Assembly: GCA_021818865.1 (NCBI GenBank)
Contig: JAKASX010000035.1
Span: forward strand, 1 to 33,837
Length of the DNA: 33,837 nt
Reading direction: 5' to 3'
Source: Acidobacteriota bacterium
Lineage (GTDB): Bacteria > Acidobacteriota > Terriglobia > Acidiferrales > UBA7541
The notes under the pieces were generated by a model. The model did no database searches. It was given only the letters and a program-made list of their open reading frames with translations, and was not told where the DNA came from. Position 1 is the first letter of the stretch; every line of letters starts with the position of its first letter. The position numbers and the translations under genes were made by a program. Positions 1 through 16,800 of the stretch are shown one piece after another.

Positions 1-2783
1 ACGTTCATTCGTACGCCGAGCCGGACAACGAAAATTACGGCTTGCTGCGACTCGATTACTCGATCAATTCGCGCTGGCATCTGTTCGGCACCTATCGCGA
101 ACAGAAAATCCTGTTCTACACCCCCTCCCAGGTCGACATCATTCCCGGTCAACAGCAGCTCATCAGCGCAACTCCGGTGCAGCCGCACTTCGCCACGTTC
201 ATGCTGACCGGCCAGATCGGCTCGCACTTCACCATGCAGACGCATGGCTCCTACATGCGCGATTGGTGGGCGTGGAACCGCGCGACGCTGGCCAATCCGG
301 CGAACGTTCCGGGAATCGGGGGTACGCTGCAAGTTTCCGGCGAAGGAGCAACGGGAACCGGCGGCTCCGGCAAGCCGTTTGCCGATCCCATTAACTTCAA
401 CACCCAGCAGGCTCGCGCGCGCACTTGGGACGGCCGCGACTGGTATCTGGCAGAAGACGACAGCTGGTTGCACGGCAACCACACGTTCCAATTCGGCGCC
501 GCCTGGTACTACTGGAACATCACGCACATCCGCACCGACGACGTTCTGGGCGGTTTGACCGGTGGGCCAATCTACTGGGTCAGTTCGTCCAACGCCTCCA
601 GCGGATCGTACGCCGGTGTAGGGGCTAACTATATGCCTCCCACTTGCACGACGACGCTCACTACGAACTGCCTGCAGAGCAGCGACACGAGCCGTTGGGC
701 ATCCGAATACGCCGCAATGTTAGGGATGGTGGATCACACTTCGCAGGTGGCAACGCGGAACGGTTTGTTCCAAGCGAACCCGCTTGGCACGCCGCTGGCG
801 GACAACGTTCACATCGGCTCCTTCTACACTTACTGGCAGGACGTTTGGCAGGTGAAACCGACGGTTACCATCACCTATGGGCTGAGCTGGGGCCTGCAAT
901 TCCCGCCGGAGGAACTCAACGGGCTGCAGTCCGTAGCGGAATACTCGGCGAACGGACAGCCCATCTCAAACATCAACGCCTATTTCCAGGCAAGGCAGCA
1001 GGCGATGGATTCGATGAACTTCGCCGCCCTCCAGGGCCTCAATAATTTCCAATACGCGCCCATCCGCACCGTTCCCGGCGTTTCGCGTCCGCTCAGCACC
1101 TATTACGGTGCTCTCGGCCCGCGCTTCGCCGTGGCTTGGCAACCGTCATTTGACAACCCCTTCTTTGGCAACCGCCAGACGGTGATTCGCGCCGGTTACT
1201 CGATCGTGTGGAACCGGACGAACGCGGTGGGATTGGTCATGACCCCTCTGCTCGGCACCGGGCCGACGCAGATCGTGGGCTGCAACGCGCCGGCCATCAC
1301 CGGCGGCATCGGCGGCCCCGGCACGTTTGCCGGATGCACCGGGAGCAACACGAATCCGACGAACGCGTTCCGGATCGGTATCGACGGCAATTCGCTGCCG
1401 ATGCCCACTCCGACGAGTGGCTATCCGGTCAGCGTTTCCAGCCCGTTGGGTTCGACGTACGGATTCAACATGGATCCGGCGTGGACGCCCCCGTACTCGC
1501 ACAACGTCACGTTCGACATACAGCGTTCCTTCCCGAACAACTGGCTGGTGGACATCGGATACATCGGACGCTTCAGCCGGAACCTGGAAAACGGAGCCGA
1601 CTTGGGCGCTTCCGACATGTTTGCCAAGGATCCGATCTCGGGACAGACATTGGCTCAGGCCTTCGACAACATTTCGCAATTCGAACGCGCCGGTGGCACG
1701 GCGGCCAATGCTCCCACTCAACCGTTCTTTGAAGACATGATGGCGCCCGAAAATATAAACGGGACCATGATGGGCGGCACGGCACTGTGCGAATACCTCT
1801 ACAGCAGCACCTGCACGGTTGCCGCGACGGAAACGGCCGACTCGGTTGACCCAGGCGCGACGACGAACGGCAGCCTGGGCGGCTTCATGGAACTCGGCTA
1901 CAACCTCATCGCCAGCGTTCCGCTGGACCCGATGCAGTACCTCTTCAACTTCTGGAACTACGGCGGCGGCTATGCGAACTACAACGCCGGGTTCATTTCG
2001 GTGCACAAGGCGTTCAGCCAGGGCTTGAACTTCACGTTCAACTACACCTGGTCACACGCCCTCGGCACGCAGGCTTTGAACCAGGAATACATTATTTACG
2101 GCAACCCGTCGCCCTACCAGCAGTCGACCGGGTACGGCACCGCGGCATTCGACCGGCGGAACGTTTTCAACTCAACTTGGTATTACGTTCTGCCCTTTGG
2201 CCATGGCCAGCGCTTCGCGTCGAGCAACTCGTTCATCAACCGCATCATCGGCGGTTGGTACTCGTCGGGAATCTGGACCTGGCAGTCGGGCCTGCCGATC
2301 TGCATCGCCGCCGATGGTGATTACGGCGACCTGGGTTCGGGTGCGGTGAACCAGACCTGCGCGCAGGCGCCTTCTCAACTGTTCGGCCTTGCCGGCCAAT
2401 ACCGGAACGTTCCCGGTTCGGGCGGCATCGGCGTCGCCGGCGCTCCCGCCGGCGGCGGCAGCGGAATCAATATCCTGTCCGATCCCGCGGCCGTCTACAA
2501 CAGCCTCAGCCGTCCGCTGCTGACGCAAAACCTGCGGCCGTTCGACTTCAACTTCGTGCAGCCGCCGACTTGGAACGTGGACCTGTCGTTCGGAAAAAAC
2601 ATCATCGCGACCGAGCGCTACAAGGCCTATTTCACCGCGGATCTGTTCAACGCGTTCAACCTGTTCCAGCCCGATTGGGGCAACGTGTCGCTCGACATGA
2701 ACAATCCCGCTGCGTTCGGCGTGGTTACCGATCAGGGCAACCAGCCGCGCAGCATCCAACTCGGGTTGCGTTTCGAGTTTTGA
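1..2783 (+). CDS. TonB-dependent receptor, Oar-like, 3' part (5' end outside window)
   Basis: The reading frame is open from base 3, so the gene starts upstream and only about 926 C-terminal residues are here. What is visible is a long outer-membrane beta-barrel: alternating aromatic/polar strands (an early NYGLLRLDYSIN strand), many Asn/Gly/Tyr-rich loops, and a last strand LGLRFEF ending in Phe, the usual C-terminal signal for BAM-mediated insertion. The segment NVDLSFGKNI followed by a strand with FNAFNLFQ is typical of the large Oar/carboxypeptidase-regulatory TonB receptors that are amplified in Acidobacteriota. The plug and the N-terminal CarboxypepD_reg domain would lie upstream. The likely role is energised uptake of large substrates such as oligosaccharides, or adhesion; the substrate cannot be told. 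A strong hairpin follows the stop. Confidence 0.9.
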   Translation, partial: VHSYAEPDNENYGLLRLDYSINSRWHLFGTYREQKILFYTPSQVDIIPGQQQLISATPVQPHFATFMLTGQIGSHFTMQTHGSYMRDWWAWNRATLANPANVPGIGGTLQVSGEGATGTGGSGKPFADPINFNTQQARARTWDGRDWYLAEDDSWLHGNHTFQFGAAWYYWNITHIRTDDVLGGLTGGPIYWVSSSNASSGSYAGVGANYMPPTCTTTLTTNCLQSSDTSRWASEYAAMLGMVDHTSQVATRNGLFQANPLGTPLADNVHIGSFYTYWQDVWQVKPTVTITYGLSWGLQFPPEELNGLQSVAEYSANGQPISNINAYFQARQQAMDSMNFAALQGLNNFQYAPIRTVPGVSRPLSTYYGALGPRFAVAWQPSFDNPFFGNRQTVIRAGYSIVWNRTNAVGLVMTPLLGTGPTQIVGCNAPAITGGIGGPGTFAGCTGSNTNPTNAFRIGIDGNSLPMPTPTSGYPVSVSSPLGSTYGFNMDPAWTPPYSHNVTFDIQRSFPNNWLVDIGYIGRFSRNLENGADLGASDMFAKDPISGQTLAQAFDNISQFERAGGTAANAPTQPFFEDMMAPENINGTMMGGTALCEYLYSSTCTVAATETADSVDPGATTNGSLGGFMELGYNLIASVPLDPMQYLFNFWNYGGGYANYNAGFISVHKAFSQGLNFTFNYTWSHALGTQALNQEYIIYGNPSPYQQSTGYGTAAFDRRNVFNSTWYYVLPFGHGQRFASSNSFINRIIGGWYSSGIWTWQSGLPICIAADGDYGDLGSGAVNQTCAQAPSQLFGLAGQYRNVPGSGGIGVAGAPAGGGSGINILSDPAAVYNSLSRPLLTQNLRPFDFNFVQPPTWNVDLSFGKNIIATERYKAYFTADLFNAFNLFQPDWGNVSLDMNNPAAFGVVTDQGNQPRSIQLGLRFEF

Positions 2784-11525: not shown

Positions 11526-11554
11526 AACGTAACACCCGCATTGTGGCCTGTCAA
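11526..11554 (-). promoter_or_regulatory. Sigma-70 type promoter for gcvT
   Basis: Read on the minus strand: TTGACA (11554-11549), a 17-base spacer, then TACGTT (11531-11526). The -35 is perfect and the -10 matches 4 of 6. The predicted start of transcription near 11519 leaves a leader of about 30 bases before GTG 11489. No glycine riboswitch is visible in or upstream of this leader. Confidence 0.6.
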
Positions 11555-13562
11555 GGAGCGGCCAGGACGGTCGCGGACCGCGTGGCGCCGAGTGCGATGC
11601 GGCTTCAAAAGCGGGGTTCAGGCGCCGATTTTGCCGATGAGCGCCTGGAAACGGGGATCAGAGCGAACCGCGTACACACAGACGGCCGGCGCGACAGTTC
11701 TTGCCGGCGGTACGTTTACTTTCAACGCGCCCACGCCGCCGGGCCCACCGAGCATTCAGGGCGGCGTCTTCTCCGGTTCGGGAACGGCGACGGGATCGGT
11801 GCTGAACCCCGGCGGCGCCGTCGCTCCAGGAACGTCCACGACGGTGGGCGCGATTGCAATCGCGAAGAGCACCATTCCAAGTAATTACACGCAGGGATCG
11901 GTGGGCGCATTCGACGTCAAGATCGGTGGAACGAGCGCCGGCCAGTTCGACACGCTGGCGATCGGCGGAGCGGCATCAATCAGCGGCGCGCTCAACATCA
12001 GCACTATCGGCGGATTCACGCCAACCGTAGGCCAGACGTTCGCCATTATGACGTATACGTCAGAGACGGGTACGTTTTCGTCAGTCACCTCCGGCTGGTG
12101 CGTCGCGTACAACAGCGCTTCGGCTGTGGCGACCTACGCGAATGCCAGTTGCAACGGGCATACTGGATTTGCGCTTACGGTGACGACTGCGGGTAACGGA
12201 ACTGGGACGGTGACGAGCAGTCCTGCGGGAATTGATTGCACAAGCGGCAGCGCAACGGGCTGCTCGGCCAGCTTTTCGAGCGGGACGAGCGTGACGCTCA
12301 CCGCAGCCCCTGCCTCCGGCTCCGTGTTCGCCGGTTGGAGCGGAAATTCGGCTTGCAGCGGGACCGGAACCTGCACGATCGGGATGAGCGCTGCGGAGTC
12401 AGTCACTGCAACATTTAATCCCACCTACGCGCTTACGGTGACGACTGCGGGTAACGGAACTGGGACGGTGACGAGCAGTCCTGCGGGAATTGATTGCACA
12501 AGCGGCAGCACGACAGGTTGCACGGCGAATTACGTGAGCGGGACGAGTGTGACGCTGACGGCGACGGCAGCATCAGGCTCCGTGTTTGCCGGTTGGAGCG
12601 GAAATTCGGCCTGCAGCGGAACGGGAACCTGCACGATTGCGATGACTGCTTCGGAAGCGGTCACCGCGACGTTCAACGCGGCAGCGCCTGCCGTGACGCT
12701 TTCCGTCAATAGCCTGACCTTCGGGCCGCAGGACGTGGGTTCGACGAGCGCGGCGCAATCGGTGACGCTGACCAATTCCGGCAACGCGGCGCTTTCCGTC
12801 AGCGGGGTCGCCGTCGGCGGAACGAATGCCGGCGATTTCGCGGAGACGAACACTTGTGGCACCAGCGTGGCCACCGGCGCGAATTGCACGATCACCGTGA
12901 CGTTCACCCCGAGCGCGGTTGGTTCGCGCAGCGCGAGCATCTCGATCGCCGACAACGCCAGCGGCAGCCCGCAAAGCATCTCGCTTTCGGGCACCGGCGT
13001 TGATTTCGCGGTTTCCGCCACGCCGGCCGACCAGCAGGCGAGCGCCGGCGGCACGGTCAGCTATGCCGTGACGGTGACGCCGCAGACGGGCGGCTTCCCG
13101 AACAGCGTGGCGCTGGCGGCTTCCGGTGCACCGGCTGGCGCGACGATTTCGTTTTCGCCGGCCGCCGTGACACCGGGTTCGAGCACAGCAACCAGCACGA
13201 TGACGGTTGTCTTGCCGGCAGCCTCGTCGGCACCGCCGGCAGTTGCCCCGAACGGATGGCCGCCGGGCGGGGTTGGCCTGGCGATGGTCGGGGCGGTGGG
13301 AATGCTACTGCTGCTCCTTCTGGTGGGAATCAGGCTAAAGAGCGGCGAAGGAAGTCCGCGCTTCACGCGAACGAGAGCGAAGCGTTTCGCGATGGGGTGC
13401 GTTCTGGCGTTGGCGCTGGGAGCGGGGCTGGCGGGTTGCGACGCCGGCTATCCGACTCCCACGCCGCCAGCGCCACAATCCACGAACTACACGGTGACGG
13501 TCACGGGGACTTCGGGCTCGCTCGATCACTCGGCGAGCGTAACGCTGACAGTGTCTCAGTAG
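11541..13562 (+). CDS. Secreted repeat protein (InlB-like repeats, choice-of-anchor D), 5'-truncated
   Basis: The frame encodes up to 673 residues but has no signal peptide. The first 45-50 residues are basic and look non-coding, and recognisable protein begins at YTQTAGATVLAGGTFT, the end of an autotransporter-like passenger. Then come two near-identical 86-residue InlB/Flg_new-type repeats (about 210-380, each with SVFAGWSGNSACSGTGTCTI), an ASH/choice-of-anchor D domain (about 384-487, SVNSLTFGPQDVGSTSAAQS), an Ig-like domain, a transmembrane helix (about 571-600) with a basic tail, and a second hydrophobic stretch ending in the lipobox-like LAGC (C633) before a Thr-rich beta tail TVTVTGTSGSLDHSASVTLT. 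The role is presumably cell-surface adhesion or structure. The only start is a TTG at 11541 that overlaps the gcvT promoter, so I read this as the 3' part of a larger gene cut off by rearrangement. Confidence 0.7.
   Translation: MWPVKERPGRSRTAWRRVRCGFKSGVQAPILPMSAWKRGSERTAYTQTAGATVLAGGTFTFNAPTPPGPPSIQGGVFSGSGTATGSVLNPGGAVAPGTSTTVGAIAIAKSTIPSNYTQGSVGAFDVKIGGTSAGQFDTLAIGGAASISGALNISTIGGFTPTVGQTFAIMTYTSETGTFSSVTSGWCVAYNSASAVATYANASCNGHTGFALTVTTAGNGTGTVTSSPAGIDCTSGSATGCSASFSSGTSVTLTAAPASGSVFAGWSGNSACSGTGTCTIGMSAAESVTATFNPTYALTVTTAGNGTGTVTSSPAGIDCTSGSTTGCTANYVSGTSVTLTATAASGSVFAGWSGNSACSGTGTCTIAMTASEAVTATFNAAAPAVTLSVNSLTFGPQDVGSTSAAQSVTLTNSGNAALSVSGVAVGGTNAGDFAETNTCGTSVATGANCTITVTFTPSAVGSRSASISIADNASGSPQSISLSGTGVDFAVSATPADQQASAGGTVSYAVTVTPQTGGFPNSVALAASGAPAGATISFSPAAVTPGSSTATSTMTVVLPAASSAPPAVAPNGWPPGGVGLAMVGAVGMLLLLLLVGIRLKSGEGSPRFTRTRAKRFAMGCVLALALGAGLAGCDAGYPTPTPPAPQSTNYTVTVTGTSGSLDHSASVTLTVSQ
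12171..12686 (+). repeat. Tandem 258-bp repeat inside the surface-protein gene
   Basis: The block beginning GCGCTTACGGTGACGACTGC occurs at 12171 and again at 12429, exactly 258 bases (86 codons) apart. The first 80 or so bases are identical and the rest is highly similar with mostly synonymous changes. The near-identity suggests recent duplication or gene conversion and a potential for copy-number change. Confidence 0.85.
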
Positions 13563-13584: not shown

Positions 13585-14169
13585 ATGAGGATCGGAGGCG
13601 GTGTGCTCGCGGCGGTGATGGCGGCTGCGTTTCTGGCGATGCCAGCAGCGGCACAACAGACGCCGAAGGTGGACGTGTCGCTGGGTTACAGCTACGTGCG
13701 GTCGAATCTGTTGCCCGATAACGGCTGCTGCTTCGGGATGAATGGAGGGTTCGGCTCAATCACCTACAACGTGAATTCGTGGCTGGGACTGACGGGGGAA
13801 GTCGGAGGTTATAACACGGGGAACGTGGAATCGACGGGAGCGGACCTGACGGTGGTTTCGTATTTATTCGGTCTCCAATTCACTCTGCGGCGAAGCAAGT
13901 ATTTCACTCCCTATGCGCATGTTCTGGTGGGGGCGGCGCACGTGGGAGGGACGCTGTACACGGGAACTGCGGGATCTCCGGGGTTGGGCGCGCAGACGGA
14001 TTTTGCGACGGCCATTGGCGGGGGAATCGACGCGAACGTAACGCGGCACGTGGCGATTCGGGTGTTTCAGGCCGATTATTTCTTCACGCAATTCGCGAAC
14101 GGCGTGAACGACCACCAAAACAGCCTGCGAATAAGCGTGGGCATCGTCTTCCATTTCGGCAAACGATAA
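13585..14169 (+). CDS. Outer-membrane beta-barrel protein (OmpA/OmpW-like small porin)
   Basis: A 194-residue protein with a clear signal peptide (GVLAAVMAAAFLAMPAAAQQ, cleavage after AAA or AQQ, about residue 25). It then has amphipathic strands typical of an eight-stranded barrel: VDVSLGYSYVRSN, ITYNVNSWLGLTGEVGGY, LQFTLRRSKYFTPYAHVLVGAAHV, HVAIRVFQADYFFTQFA, LRISVGIVFHFGKR. The arrangement matches the OMP_b-brl family. The ATG has GGAGG 7 bases upstream. It begins 22 bases after the surface-protein gene, so the two were probably one transcript; the truncation of the first gene leaves its promoter uncertain. Confidence 0.85.
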   Translation: MRIGGGVLAAVMAAAFLAMPAAAQQTPKVDVSLGYSYVRSNLLPDNGCCFGMNGGFGSITYNVNSWLGLTGEVGGYNTGNVESTGADLTVVSYLFGLQFTLRRSKYFTPYAHVLVGAAHVGGTLYTGTAGSPGLGAQTDFATAIGGGIDANVTRHVAIRVFQADYFFTQFANGVNDHQNSLRISVGIVFHFGKR

Positions 14170-14277: not shown

Positions 14278-16800
14278 CTAGCGCAAGGCGATTTCGATGA
14301 ACGGGTTCGGGAAGCCGGTTTGCTCGAGCGACAGGATAACGAGCTTGCCGGTGGTAACGATGTAGAAGATGGCGGCGTTGGGCGCTAGCGTGCCGCGGCC
14401 GTTGGACGAAACGACGTAGGCGCCGTTGATTTGGCTGGTGGTGACCACGCCGCCTTGCACCGAATCCAGCGTGCCGCTAAGACCGCCGGTGCCGTTGAAC
14501 GTCAAGATGCCAGAGGACGCGATCGGCGCTTGTGCGGCTGAGGGCGCCGAAACCAGCGGCTGAGTGCCGAAAAAGAGCGAGCCGTTGAGCGAGGCATTGC
14601 TGAACGCCTGATTGGCTTGCGGCTCGAACATCCCGAAGCTGGGACTCGACCCGGTGCCTTCGATGAACGCCTGATTCGAGCCGATCATGTAGCCGACGAC
14701 GGTGCTGGCGATGCCGCTGCCGGTCTGTGGGGCGAGCGTGAAGCGCCCGCTCGAATCGGTATTGAACGTTTCCGTGAACGTGGCGGAATTATTCGACGTA
14801 ATCGTGCCGCCGGCATCTTCGTCGTAGGCGAGCGTGGCCGTGCCGGTGGTGGTGGAGGAAAGCAGGCCCACCTGGCCATCGGGCGCCGGGCCGGACGTGG
14901 ATGACTGGGACTGATACACCATGTTTCCGTTGATCGAAGCGGTGGTGAACGGCGGCGGGCCCTGCTGCTCAACCACGCCGATGCGAACGGCTCCCGTCGT
15001 GGGGTCGCTGCCGATCGCAAACCATTCGTTGGTGGAAACAACGTAGAAATCGAAACTGCCTTCCGCGGAAGCGGAGGTCAGGGTGCCGCGGCCGTTCGAC
15101 GCGATGCTGAGCGTTCCAGTGAAGGCCTGGCTCGAGGACAGCGTGCCGGCGTCGTTTTCGTCGTAGAGGCCGTTCGAAACGGCGCCGCTCGTCACCGTGG
15201 CGCTGCCAATCACGACGTCGGGCTGAGCGGAAGCATCCCAACCCGACATACCGAAGGCATAGCCGCCGGACATGGCTGAAGTGGAGAAGACCTTAGTATC
15301 CTGCGCGGCGAGCGTGCCGGTGAAGTTTTCGCCGGTGGCGTCAGTTTCGGTCATGACGCCAATCGAAGCCGTGCCGGAAGAGATCGGGCCGAGCGCTAGA
15401 TTGAAATGGAACGTGTTGCCGCTCGCGTCGGTGAAGCTGAGCACGCCGCGATCGTCGCTGCCGACCGAATACGTGCCGGAGTTGATCGAAACGTTCGAGC
15501 CGGTGAGAGTGTGCGTCGCGTTTTCAATGTCTTCAACGCCGGTGGTGATGTTGCCGCTGCCGTCGGCGGTGAACGTGCCCGCCATGCCGGCGTCGTAGCC
15601 GCCGAGCAGGAAAGCGTATTGGCCGGTGAGCAGCGAATCCAGCGTCGGATTGATGGTGATCGAGAGCTGCTGGAGGGCCAGCGCCGCGGGCGTTTCGGAA
15701 TCGGTGGCCTGAACGGTGAACGTCGAGATCCCGGTGGCCGAGGGCGTGCCGCTGATCAGCCCGGCGGTGCTCAAGGTAAGGCCGGCGGGCAGCGAGCCGC
15801 TGGTGACGGTCCACGTGTACGGTGCCTGGCCGCCACTGACGGCGAGTTGGCTGCCGTAGGGAATGCTTTCAGTGCCGTTCGGCAGCCCCGTCGTGGTGAT
15901 GGAGAAGGGAACCGGATTCACAATGATGCTGAGCGGTTGCGTCAACGTGGCTGCGGTGGGCGTTTCCGAATCGGTGACTTGGACCGTGAAGCTCGCGGTT
16001 CCCGTGGCGGTGGGAACGCCGCCGATCACGCCGCTGTTGCTCAGGCTAAGGCCGGCGGGAAGCGAGCCGGCGACGACCCGCCACGAGTAGGGACCGACTC
16101 CGCCGGTGGCGACGAGGTTGACGGAATAACTGGTGTTGAGCGCGCCGTTTGGCAAGGAGGTGGTGGAAATGGCGAGCGCGGCGGGCGCGGCGATGCTGAT
16201 GCTGAGCGCCTGCGTGGCGGAAAGATTCACCGCGTCGGAAATCTGCACGGTGAACTGGAACGTGCCGGAGCCGGTGGGCGTGCCGCTGAGAATTCCGGAA
16301 GTGGTGTTCAGCGTGAGACCGGGCGGGAGCGCGCCAGAAATGACGCCCCAGGTGAAGGGTGCCGTGCCGCCGGCTTCAGTCATGGACTGGCTGTAGGCTG
16401 TGCCGGCGATTCCCGAGGGAAGCGTGGTAAGCGTAATCGAGGGCGGAGGATTCACAGCGATCGAGATCGCCGCTGTGTCGGCCGTGTTCGCGACGGCAGT
16501 GGCCGTGACGGTCACCGTCTGGGAGCTGGAAACCGACGTCGGGGCCTGGTAGGTGACGGTGTTGGTGGTCTGGCCGCTGAGCGTGCCCACCCCGCTCAAG
16601 CTCCAGGTGACGCCTTTATTCGAATTGTCGTTCGTCAGCGTGGCCGCGATATTGACGATCTGGCCCTGATCGATCGTCTGCGACGTGGCGGGAGAAAGCG
16701 TAATCGTGATGTCTGGCGCCGAACTGCCGCCGCATCCTGCCAGCAGAAGGAAAAGCAGCAAACTACCAATCAAAGCCAGTAAGGCGGAGGGCTTGCGCAC
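14278..16800 (-). CDS. Large lipoprotein with Ig-like (BIG2-like, He_PIG) domains and Acidobacteria-type C-terminal repeats
   Basis: An 840-residue protein starting at GTG 16800, with GGGAG 8 bases upstream. A lipoprotein signal (LLLFLLLAGCGG) puts the acylated Cys at about residue 23. A BIG2-like Ig domain (about 29-115) is followed by three He_PIG putative-Ig repeats (about 120-205, 210-295, 300-385), each with the pattern LPxGxxxxxYSxxxxxxGGxxPYTW...SGxLPAGLTLSxxGxIxGxPT. The last 450 residues consist of about four degenerate copies of a module seen as GQYAFLLGGYDAGMAGTFTADGSG followed by a strand ending in RGTL. I know this module only as an uncharacterised repeat in acidobacterial proteins. 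The protein is likely anchored in the outer membrane and surface-exposed or periplasmic; no enzymatic motif is seen. Confidence 0.85.
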   Translation of the reverse strand: MRKPSALLALIGSLLLFLLLAGCGGSSAPDITITLSPATSQTIDQGQIVNIAATLTNDNSNKGVTWSLSGVGTLSGQTTNTVTYQAPTSVSSSQTVTVTATAVANTADTAAISIAVNPPPSITLTTLPSGIAGTAYSQSMTEAGGTAPFTWGVISGALPPGLTLNTTSGILSGTPTGSGTFQFTVQISDAVNLSATQALSISIAAPAALAISTTSLPNGALNTSYSVNLVATGGVGPYSWRVVAGSLPAGLSLSNSGVIGGVPTATGTASFTVQVTDSETPTAATLTQPLSIIVNPVPFSITTTGLPNGTESIPYGSQLAVSGGQAPYTWTVTSGSLPAGLTLSTAGLISGTPSATGISTFTVQATDSETPAALALQQLSITINPTLDSLLTGQYAFLLGGYDAGMAGTFTADGSGNITTGVEDIENATHTLTGSNVSINSGTYSVGSDDRGVLSFTDASGNTFHFNLALGPISSGTASIGVMTETDATGENFTGTLAAQDTKVFSTSAMSGGYAFGMSGWDASAQPDVVIGSATVTSGAVSNGLYDENDAGTLSSSQAFTGTLSIASNGRGTLTSASAEGSFDFYVVSTNEWFAIGSDPTTGAVRIGVVEQQGPPPFTTASINGNMVYQSQSSTSGPAPDGQVGLLSSTTTGTATLAYDEDAGGTITSNNSATFTETFNTDSSGRFTLAPQTGSGIASTVVGYMIGSNQAFIEGTGSSPSFGMFEPQANQAFSNASLNGSLFFGTQPLVSAPSAAQAPIASSGILTFNGTGGLSGTLDSVQGGVVTTSQINGAYVVSSNGRGTLAPNAAIFYIVTTGKLVILSLEQTGFPNPFIEIALR

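What the first reader, a model, noticed from the sequence alone, without database searches (positions are those of the whole stretch)
13250..13562. C-terminal tail with helix, basic loop, lipobox-like Cys and Thr-rich strand
The surface protein ends in a transmembrane helix (571-600), an Arg/Lys-rich loop, a second hydrophobic helix ending LAGC (C633) and a TVTVTGTSGSLDHSASVTLT strand. From memory, similar tails recur at the ends of acidobacterial choice-of-anchor D proteins. It looks like a dedicated anchoring or sorting signal, with an internal lipobox that could be lipidated after processing, but I know of no described sortase or exosortase partner.
Basis: partly seen in the sequence, partly recalled or inferred. 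Interest (0 to 1): 0.55.

Follow-up and report, generated by a model that had tools for sequence, protein, structure and literature searches.

The report
Lipid-anchor signal inside a split domain
Soil Acidobacteria end many secreted proteins with an immunoglobulin-like domain interrupted by a membrane hairpin that carries a lipoprotein signal, probably a way to put a lipid anchor near the far end of a protein; the tail already has a database name, but how it works has not been shown.

Summary
In detail: TM helix, basic loop, second helix ending LAGC (C633), Thr-rich strand. The tail is not unique: it scores 57.8 bits against NCBIfam NF058595 ("lipo-invert putative C-terminal anchoring domain", cut-off 37), a family over cut-off in 88 of 151 sampled genomes of its class. 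The Cys is the only invariant column of 61 tails, with G/A/S before it in 61 of 61. No dedicated enzyme emerged: 29 of 86 tail-bearing genomes lack a detectable exosortase; LspA is single-copy in 20 of 20. Best reading: housekeeping Lgt, and probably LspA, act on the internal lipobox, and the Ig fold holds passenger and lipidated strands together. Lipidation and cleavage are inferred. The window copy lacks a visible signal peptide and has Asp after the Cys; it may be defective.

The parts
11541..13562 (+). ORF of the tail-bearing protein: end of a beta-helix passenger, two InlB B-repeat-like domains, choice-of-anchor D domain, tail. No signal peptide visible; first ~50 residues look non-coding, so probably 5'-truncated.
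   Evidence: homologue L180 has a signal-peptide-like start and several hundred residues of repeats before the matching part
13002..13226 (+). First part of the tail's Ig-like domain (profile positions 2-76)
   Evidence: profile match 50.5 bits; AF2 pLDDT block means 87-98
13275..13343 (+). TM1, predicted stop-transfer helix
   Evidence: hydropathy; AF2 helix 96-118 with modest confidence, block means 55-76
13344..13394 (+). Basic loop, predicted cytoplasmic; also the n-region of the internal lipoprotein signal
   Evidence: loop net charge +3 or more in 61 of 61 tails
13395..13439 (+). TM2 / h-region ending in the lipobox LAGC
   Evidence: (AF2 pLDDT only 54-58 here)
13437..13439 (+). C633, the conserved Cys; predicted Lgt lipidation site and new N-terminus if LspA cuts
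   Evidence: only invariant column of the 61-row alignment A1
13440..13478 (+). Linker after the Cys (begins DAG; Asp directly after Cys is seen in 1 of 108 tails, this one)
13479..13553 (+). Last strand pair of the Ig-like domain (profile positions 78-102)
   Evidence: profile match 20.2 bits in context, 24.9 bits alone; AF2 pLDDT block means 94-98
13585..14169 (+). OMP beta-barrel gene, 22 nt after the tail gene's stop; a recurrent neighbour
   Evidence: PF13505 55.9 bits; homologue directly downstream of 11 of 86 tails

Best explanation
The tail is an NF058595 'lipo-invert' module: a single Ig-like domain interrupted, in the loop before its last two strands, by a membrane hairpin whose second arm is an internal type II (lipoprotein) signal. 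Proposed working: (1) the protein is exported by Sec through an N-terminal signal; (2) TM1 stops transfer, the basic loop stays in the cytoplasm, and TM2 starts transfer again, so that the Cys and the last strands come out on the same side as the passenger; (3) the two parts of the Ig domain join on the outer face of the inner membrane; (4) housekeeping Lgt lipidates the Cys and LspA probably cuts in front of it; (5) the chain is then cut, but the Ig fold holds the passenger to a 34-55-residue lipidated strand pair. The N-terminal lipoprotein machinery is thus used to place a lipid near the C-terminal end of a large protein. Shown here: recurrence, the invariant Cys, the charge pattern, the split Ig homology and the predicted joint fold. 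Inferred: topology, lipidation, cleavage, order of events and final location. As long as TM1 is uncut the passenger also keeps the hairpin, so release to the outer membrane would need a further cut that I did not find.
For: NF058595 over cut-off. Cys after TM2 with G/A/S at -1 in 61 of 61, basic loop in 61 of 61; Cys the only invariant column. A recalled PROSITE-type lipobox rule is met at this Cys by 46 of 61 and, in a second set, 36 of 47 tails. Gly 0.32 and Ser 0.17 in the 12 residues after the Cys. A profile of 22 uninterrupted domains matches the part before TM1 in 61 of 61, and the part after the Cys from position 60 or later in 59 of 61; median 20.5 bits against 2.1 for shuffles, each real part beating its own 20 shuffles in 61 of 61. 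Window: positions 2-76, an 84-residue gap, then 78-102. AF2 pLDDT 87-98 over both parts, and one contiguous 99-residue PDB Ig domain aligned with 97 residues of model 4..189, rmsd 2.1, Z 12.7. Weak NF058595 hits outside the class that I read were of two telling kinds in 6 of 10: uninterrupted Ig domains (L030, L032, L035) and ordinary N-terminal lipoprotein signals (L029, L036, L038). LspA in 20 of 20 tail-bearing genomes of the phylum sample, Lgt in 40 of 41 genomes of the family; lspA and lgt are neighbours in the window's genome. Signal-peptide-like start in 29 of 37 tail proteins whose 5' end is closed, by a crude rule without a control.
Against: No experiment shows lipidation or cutting. 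15 of 61 and 11 of 47 tails miss the strict lipobox rule, chiefly at -2 or -3. AF2 has low confidence in TM2 and the loop (block means 46-61) and models no membrane. Writing the two parts as one string lifts the profile score little (median 42.1 against 41.5) and gives a hit running to position 100 or beyond in 29 of 61 by my count of the rows. Two tails (L073, L094) do not place the last part as expected. In alignment A3 the Cys column is only 90% or more, not invariant, by misalignment of rows that all have it. TM1 would stay attached to the passenger after an LspA cut.
Confidence: 0.5

Rival explanations
1. Uncut hairpin anchor: the Ig domain sits on the inner membrane through TM1 and TM2, with the Cys diacylated by Lgt or unmodified, and no LspA cut.
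For: Same anatomy. A hairpin alone would anchor the protein, and no second cutting motif is seen before TM1 (per-position counts).
Against: Does not by itself explain why the Cys is the only invariant column or the strict G/A/S at -1 in 61 of 61, the position next to the LspA cut.
Confidence: 0.27
2. A dedicated sorting protease (exosortase, sortase, rhombosortase or CPBP type) cuts before TM1, and the lipobox part is secondary.
For: TM1 followed by arginines resembles the TM-plus-basic part of tripartite sorting signals (described in passages of PMC11980579). The window's genome has 2 exosortases and 1 sortase.
Against: In 151 class genomes: 57 with tails and exosortase, 29 tails only, 32 exosortase only, 33 neither (from lists typed). 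Sortase in 21 of 41 family genomes. G253 and G312 have tails and neither enzyme detected. No sharp motif before TM1. Rhombosortase and CPBP enzymes were not searched.
Confidence: 0.13
3. The Cys serves another role (disulfide, metal or other modification), and the lipobox look is a side effect of a Cys after a hydrophobic helix.
For: No biochemical data exist to exclude it.
Against: The surrounding pattern (basic n-region, h-region, G/A/S at -1, Gly/Ser linker) is that of a lipoprotein signal, and the NF058595 profile picks up N-terminal lipoprotein signals in other classes (3 of 10 loci read). The neighbour gene in the window begins with a similar N-terminal signal ending LLAGCGGSS.
Confidence: 0.07

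Closest known systems
NCBIfam NF058595 (invert_tail, lipo-invert putative C-terminal anchoring domain)
   Same: Window tail residues 550-671 match profile positions 1-112 of 113, 57.8 bits, cut-off 37.
   Different: The model starts just before TM1; the first part of the Ig domain (about 75 residues) lies outside it. I saw only its name and description line, not its curator comment.
MYXO-CTERM / myxosortase (MrtX)
   Same: C-terminal anchoring signal with an invariant Cys, predicted to be lipidated, with Lgt a leading candidate (passages of PMC11980579).
   Different: There the Cys precedes the TM helix, a basic cytoplasmic end closes the protein, and no defined lipobox exists (same passages). 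Here the Cys follows a second helix, in lipobox orientation, and 34-55 residues follow it.
LPXTG, PEP-CTERM and GlyGly-CTERM signals
   Same: Modular C-terminal signal with TM helix and basic residues on varied exported proteins.
   Different: Two helices instead of one, and the chain returns outside and ends in Ig strands. PEP-CTERM's enzyme family does not follow the tails.
Ordinary bacterial lipoproteins (Lgt/LspA substrates)
   Same: Basic n-region, h-region, lipobox, Cys, Gly/Ser linker.
   Different: The signal is internal, near the C-terminus (Cys 633 of 673 in the window), instead of at the N-terminus.
Ig-like linker domain of Micromonospora viridifaciens sialidase (PDB 2ber) and other uninterrupted bacterial Ig-like domains
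   Same: Same fold over 97 residues, rmsd 2.1, Z 12.7, 21% identity.
   Different: Those are uninterrupted.
GAIN and SEA domains (recalled, no call)
   Same: A cut inside a beta-rich domain whose pieces stay together without a covalent link.
   Different: Those cut themselves; here an outside peptidase would cut, and no relation is claimed.

Membership tests
NCBIfam NF058595 lipo-invert tail | Score over the curated cut-off (37 bits), near full profile coverage | tested here: met
   57.8 bits in P0001 and 61.6 in the tail alone, positions 1-112 of 113
NCBIfam NF058595 lipo-invert tail | C-terminal position on an exported protein | tested here: inconclusive
   C-terminal: yes. The window ORF has no visible signal peptide; 29 of 37 closed tail proteins elsewhere do, by a crude rule
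Lgt/LspA lipoprotein | Lipobox with G/A/S at -1, hydrophobic h-region and basic n-region before the Cys | tested here: met
   LAGC with 7 basic residues in the loop before it; recalled PROSITE-type rule met by the window
Lgt/LspA lipoprotein | Signal at the N-terminus | tested here: not met
   Cys is residue 633 of 673
Lgt/LspA lipoprotein | Lipid on the Cys and cleavage before it | not testable with these tools
   needs labelling or mass spectrometry
Tripartite sorting signals (LPXTG, PEP-CTERM, GlyGly-CTERM, MYXO-CTERM) | Motif, one TM helix, then a short basic end as the C-terminus | tested here: not met
   A second helix, Cys and 40 residues with two strands follow; no tripartite-signal model was reported for the window protein at E up to 1
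MYXO-CTERM | Invariant Cys before the TM helix | tested here: not met
   The conserved Cys follows TM2
Ig-like beta-sandwich domain | Complete set of strands packing as one sandwich | tested here: met
   By prediction only: AF2 plus VIA alignment to 2ber 404..502 with both parts; profile positions 2-76 and 78-102

The most novel reading that the evidence does not exclude
Acidobacteria make C-terminally anchored lipoproteins by cutting a protein inside one of its own domains: a lipoprotein signal is built into a loop of a terminal Ig domain, LspA severs the chain there, and the domain stays whole without the bond, so that a large passenger is held by a small lipidated strand pair. A further cut of TM1 would hand the complex to the outer membrane.
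Probability: 0.35. Interest if true: 0.85.

Novelty: new variant of a known kind. Interest (0 to 1): 0.62.

Why it matters
If the mechanism holds, general lipoprotein enzymes can anchor a protein by its far end, with no sortase, by using a domain as a non-covalent clamp. It would explain how a large and little-studied soil phylum fixes many adhesin-like proteins, glycosidases and peptidases to its envelope, would give a simple way to predict its surface proteins, and is directly testable with globomycin and Cys mutants in cultured Granulicella or Edaphobacter. It also tells annotators that the tail's real boundary lies about 75 residues upstream of the present profile.

Tried and rejected
Chance or unique tail: rejected by recurrence.

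Exosortase as partner: present in 89 of 151 class genomes but not following the tails. The tail list there has 86 genomes because I took rows with best E of about 1e-11 or lower from the printed table; the tool counts 88 over cut-off. Some absences may be assembly gaps, but G305 (1 contig) and G317 (6 contigs) also lack it. Sortase: 21 of 41 family genomes. A second LspA: not found in 20 of 20. A second Lgt: several family genomes have 2 to 4 matches, partly split hits, but the tail-rich G283 and G304 have 1. Rhombosortase, CPBP enzymes, Lnt and Lol proteins were not searched.

Conserved neighbour as processing enzyme: clustering 253 neighbour ORFs of 47 loci gave one group of 7 loci whose longest member is a large membrane protein, probably joined by a common signalling domain (not identified), the OMP barrel in 6 loci, and two groups of 3. 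No enzyme candidate.

Host-lipobox comparison: a script found only 7 N-terminal lipoprotein-like starts, most unconvincing, so no comparison was made.

Taxonomic spread: of 23 of 199 phylum genomes over cut-off, 20 are the window's genome and its class; the other 3 are not named by the tool, but the best remaining E-values belong to G066, G169 and G137, whose loci read as an N-terminal lipoprotein, an uninterrupted domain and an Arg/Gly-rich stretch. Four of the 10 outside loci read (L031, L033, L034, L037) show no tail anatomy. G268, in a family that otherwise gave weak or no hits, has a strong hit but 9% contamination. Tails on contigs labelled Betaproteobacteria (L112), Rhodanobacteraceae (L146) and Solirubrobacterales (L135) may be binning errors; untested.

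Literature: eight searches of an open-access library; none listed a paper on this tail, and NF058595, invert_tail and lipo-invert gave 0 papers. I read only search listings and passages of PMC11980579 and PMC9287161.

Selection limits: the 60 tails were chosen by me, mostly top-scoring rows of a cut list. The 47 tails of the second set came from a pattern that requires Y[TS][VI]TVTG and from a filter that requires G/A/S before the Cys, so their conservation there proves nothing; two candidates (L121, L127) with broken frames were dropped; 2 of the 47 repeat tails of the first set.

Full report
What was claimed and what is there. The ORF 11541-13562 has all of these, with the Cys at nt 13437-13439 (residue 633 of 673).

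It is a member of a named family. NCBIfam NF058595, 'lipo-invert putative C-terminal anchoring domain', matches at 57.8 bits over a cut-off of 37. Pfam gives only a sub-threshold DUF4131 hit there. The window's genome has five printed matches over cut-off. Named carriers include Granulicella, Edaphobacter, Terracidiphilus and Candidatus Sulfotelmatobacter records.

Anatomy across the family. I fetched 60 tails from 18 genomes. With the window, 61 of 61 have TM1, a loop with net charge of at least +3, a second hydrophobic stretch and a Cys with G (36), A (16) or S (9) before it; 34 to 55 residues follow, median 43. In the alignment of these 61 the Cys is the only invariant column. A lipobox rule recalled from PROSITE is met by 46 of 61; in a second, pattern-selected set by 36 of 47. 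The residue after the Cys is Gly in 44 of 61 and 35 of 47; Asp occurs once in the 108, in the window. In E. coli Asp there keeps lipoproteins in the inner membrane (recalled); whether Acidobacteria follow that rule is unknown.

The tail is one split domain. Another protein of the same genome carries uninterrupted tandem domains of the type '...STLTVxTxxxTPAGTYTVTVTGTSG...TVSLxV'. A profile built from 22 uninterrupted domains found in the fetched loci (102 positions; tails cannot enter because of a length limit) was run against the parts of each tail. The part before TM1 matched in 61 of 61 with a typical end near position 76; the part after the Cys matched from position 60 or later in 59 of 61, usually from about 73. 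The median score of the last part was 20.5 bits, against 2.1 for shuffled versions, and each beat its own 20 shuffles. Joined as one string the halves gave a hit to position 100 or more in 29 of 61 (my count), and the median score hardly rose (42.1 against 41.5), because linkers remain. In the window the two matches are positions 2-76 at nt 13002-13226 and 78-102 at nt 13479-13553, with 84 residues between.

Structure. AlphaFold2 on the window tail with 47 relatives gave mean pLDDT 81.2 and pTM 0.62; the Ig parts reach block means of 87-98, the hairpin only 46-76. A second tail (L101) gave the same order of strands and helices, mean 83.9. VIA-align placed 97 residues of model range 4..189 on residues 404..502 of a Micromonospora sialidase, Z 12.7, rmsd 2.1. 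Such a contiguous 99-residue partner can only be filled if both parts of the tail take part. Foldseek alone was weaker (best E 3.7e-4, TM-score by query length 0.41), as expected when half of the query is a hairpin.

Topology and machinery. The charge pattern puts the loop in the cytoplasm and both Ig parts outside. Of 47 named tail proteins, 37 have a closed 5' end and 29 of these a signal-peptide-like start by a crude rule without a control. Ten of the 47 were scanned with Pfam: SBBP propellers with ASH domains, NHL repeats, Big_3_5, PNGase A, arabinofuranosidase, Fn3-associated and kumamolisin pro-domains, so the tail is a generic module. LspA is present once in 20 of 20 tail-bearing genomes of the phylum sample, Lgt in 40 of 41 family genomes, the exception being 71% complete; in the window's genome lspA and lgt lie side by side between ileS-like and pseudouridine-synthase-like ORFs (the two flanking names are from my reading of the translations). 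Exosortase does not follow the tails: 57 both, 29 tail only, 32 exosortase only, 33 neither. Sortase is in 21 of 41. The window's genome has 2 exosortases and 1 sortase.

How it most likely works. Export of the passenger, a membrane hairpin within the terminal domain, lipidation of the Cys by Lgt, probable cut by LspA, and an Ig fold that keeps the pieces together. This would let the N-terminal lipoprotein pathway anchor a protein near its C-terminus. Steps up to the predicted joint fold rest on the calls above; lipidation, cut, clamp and final membrane are inference. TM1 remains attached to the passenger after such a cut, so a single LspA event does not free the protein from the inner membrane; either it stays there or a further protease acts. 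An uncut hairpin anchor is the main rival.

A recurrent neighbour. An OMP beta-barrel gene starts 22 nt after the window's tail gene. A homologue lies directly downstream on the same strand in 11 of 86 tails with enough sequence; two of the 11 (L149, L088) appear to be the same contig. Conversely at least 7 of 37 homologues of that barrel in 13 genomes lie 22 to 161 nt after a listed tail (positions compared by me). This is a subset feature and not needed by most tails, but in the window it suggests an outer-membrane partner.

The window copy. It has no signal peptide, its first ~50 residues look non-coding, and a homologue (L180) has a signal-like start and long repeats before the shared part. 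None of four other genomes of the genus had a match to the passenger. With the unusual Asp after the Cys this copy may be a remnant; the family argument does not rest on it.

Novelty. The family name and its anchoring idea are NCBI's. I found no paper for its names and none on an internal C-terminal lipobox in the listings I saw, in an open-access library only. New here, as far as I can tell, are the split Ig domain, the lack of a following exosortase, sortase or LspA copy, and the OMP neighbour.

Noticed in passing
window 13585-14169 (+): OMP beta-barrel gene (PF13505) 22 nt after the tail gene; homologues directly follow 11 of 86 tails (two of the 11 appear to be one contig) and at least 7 of 37 barrel homologues in 13 genomes follow a tail.
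   Followed up: partly
tails of window, L109, L111, L079, L088, L101, L103: Tails followed by the OMP barrel often have Gly then Phe/Tyr soon after the Cys (regex chosen after looking: 6 of 11 with barrel, 1 of 75 without). Post hoc, not a test.
   Followed up: no
window 11541-11700 (+): The tail gene seems 5'-truncated: no signal peptide, non-coding-looking start next to the gcvT-like gene; homologue L180 is longer at its N-terminus.
   Followed up: partly
L180 (G210:C25): A homologue of the window's passenger ends in what looks by eye like a PEP-CTERM instead of a lipo-invert tail; the NCBIfam hit is far below cut-off (19.9 of 85 bits). Possible exchange of anchors on one passenger type.
   Followed up: no
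window 14278-16800 (-): Neighbouring ORF begins with a classical N-terminal lipoprotein signal (RKPSALLALIGSLLLFLLLAGCGGSS) and carries Ig-like repeats; no NCBIfam match.
   Followed up: no
L112, L146, L135: Lipo-invert tails on contigs labelled Betaproteobacteria, Rhodanobacteraceae and Solirubrobacterales; binning errors or transfer.
   Followed up: no
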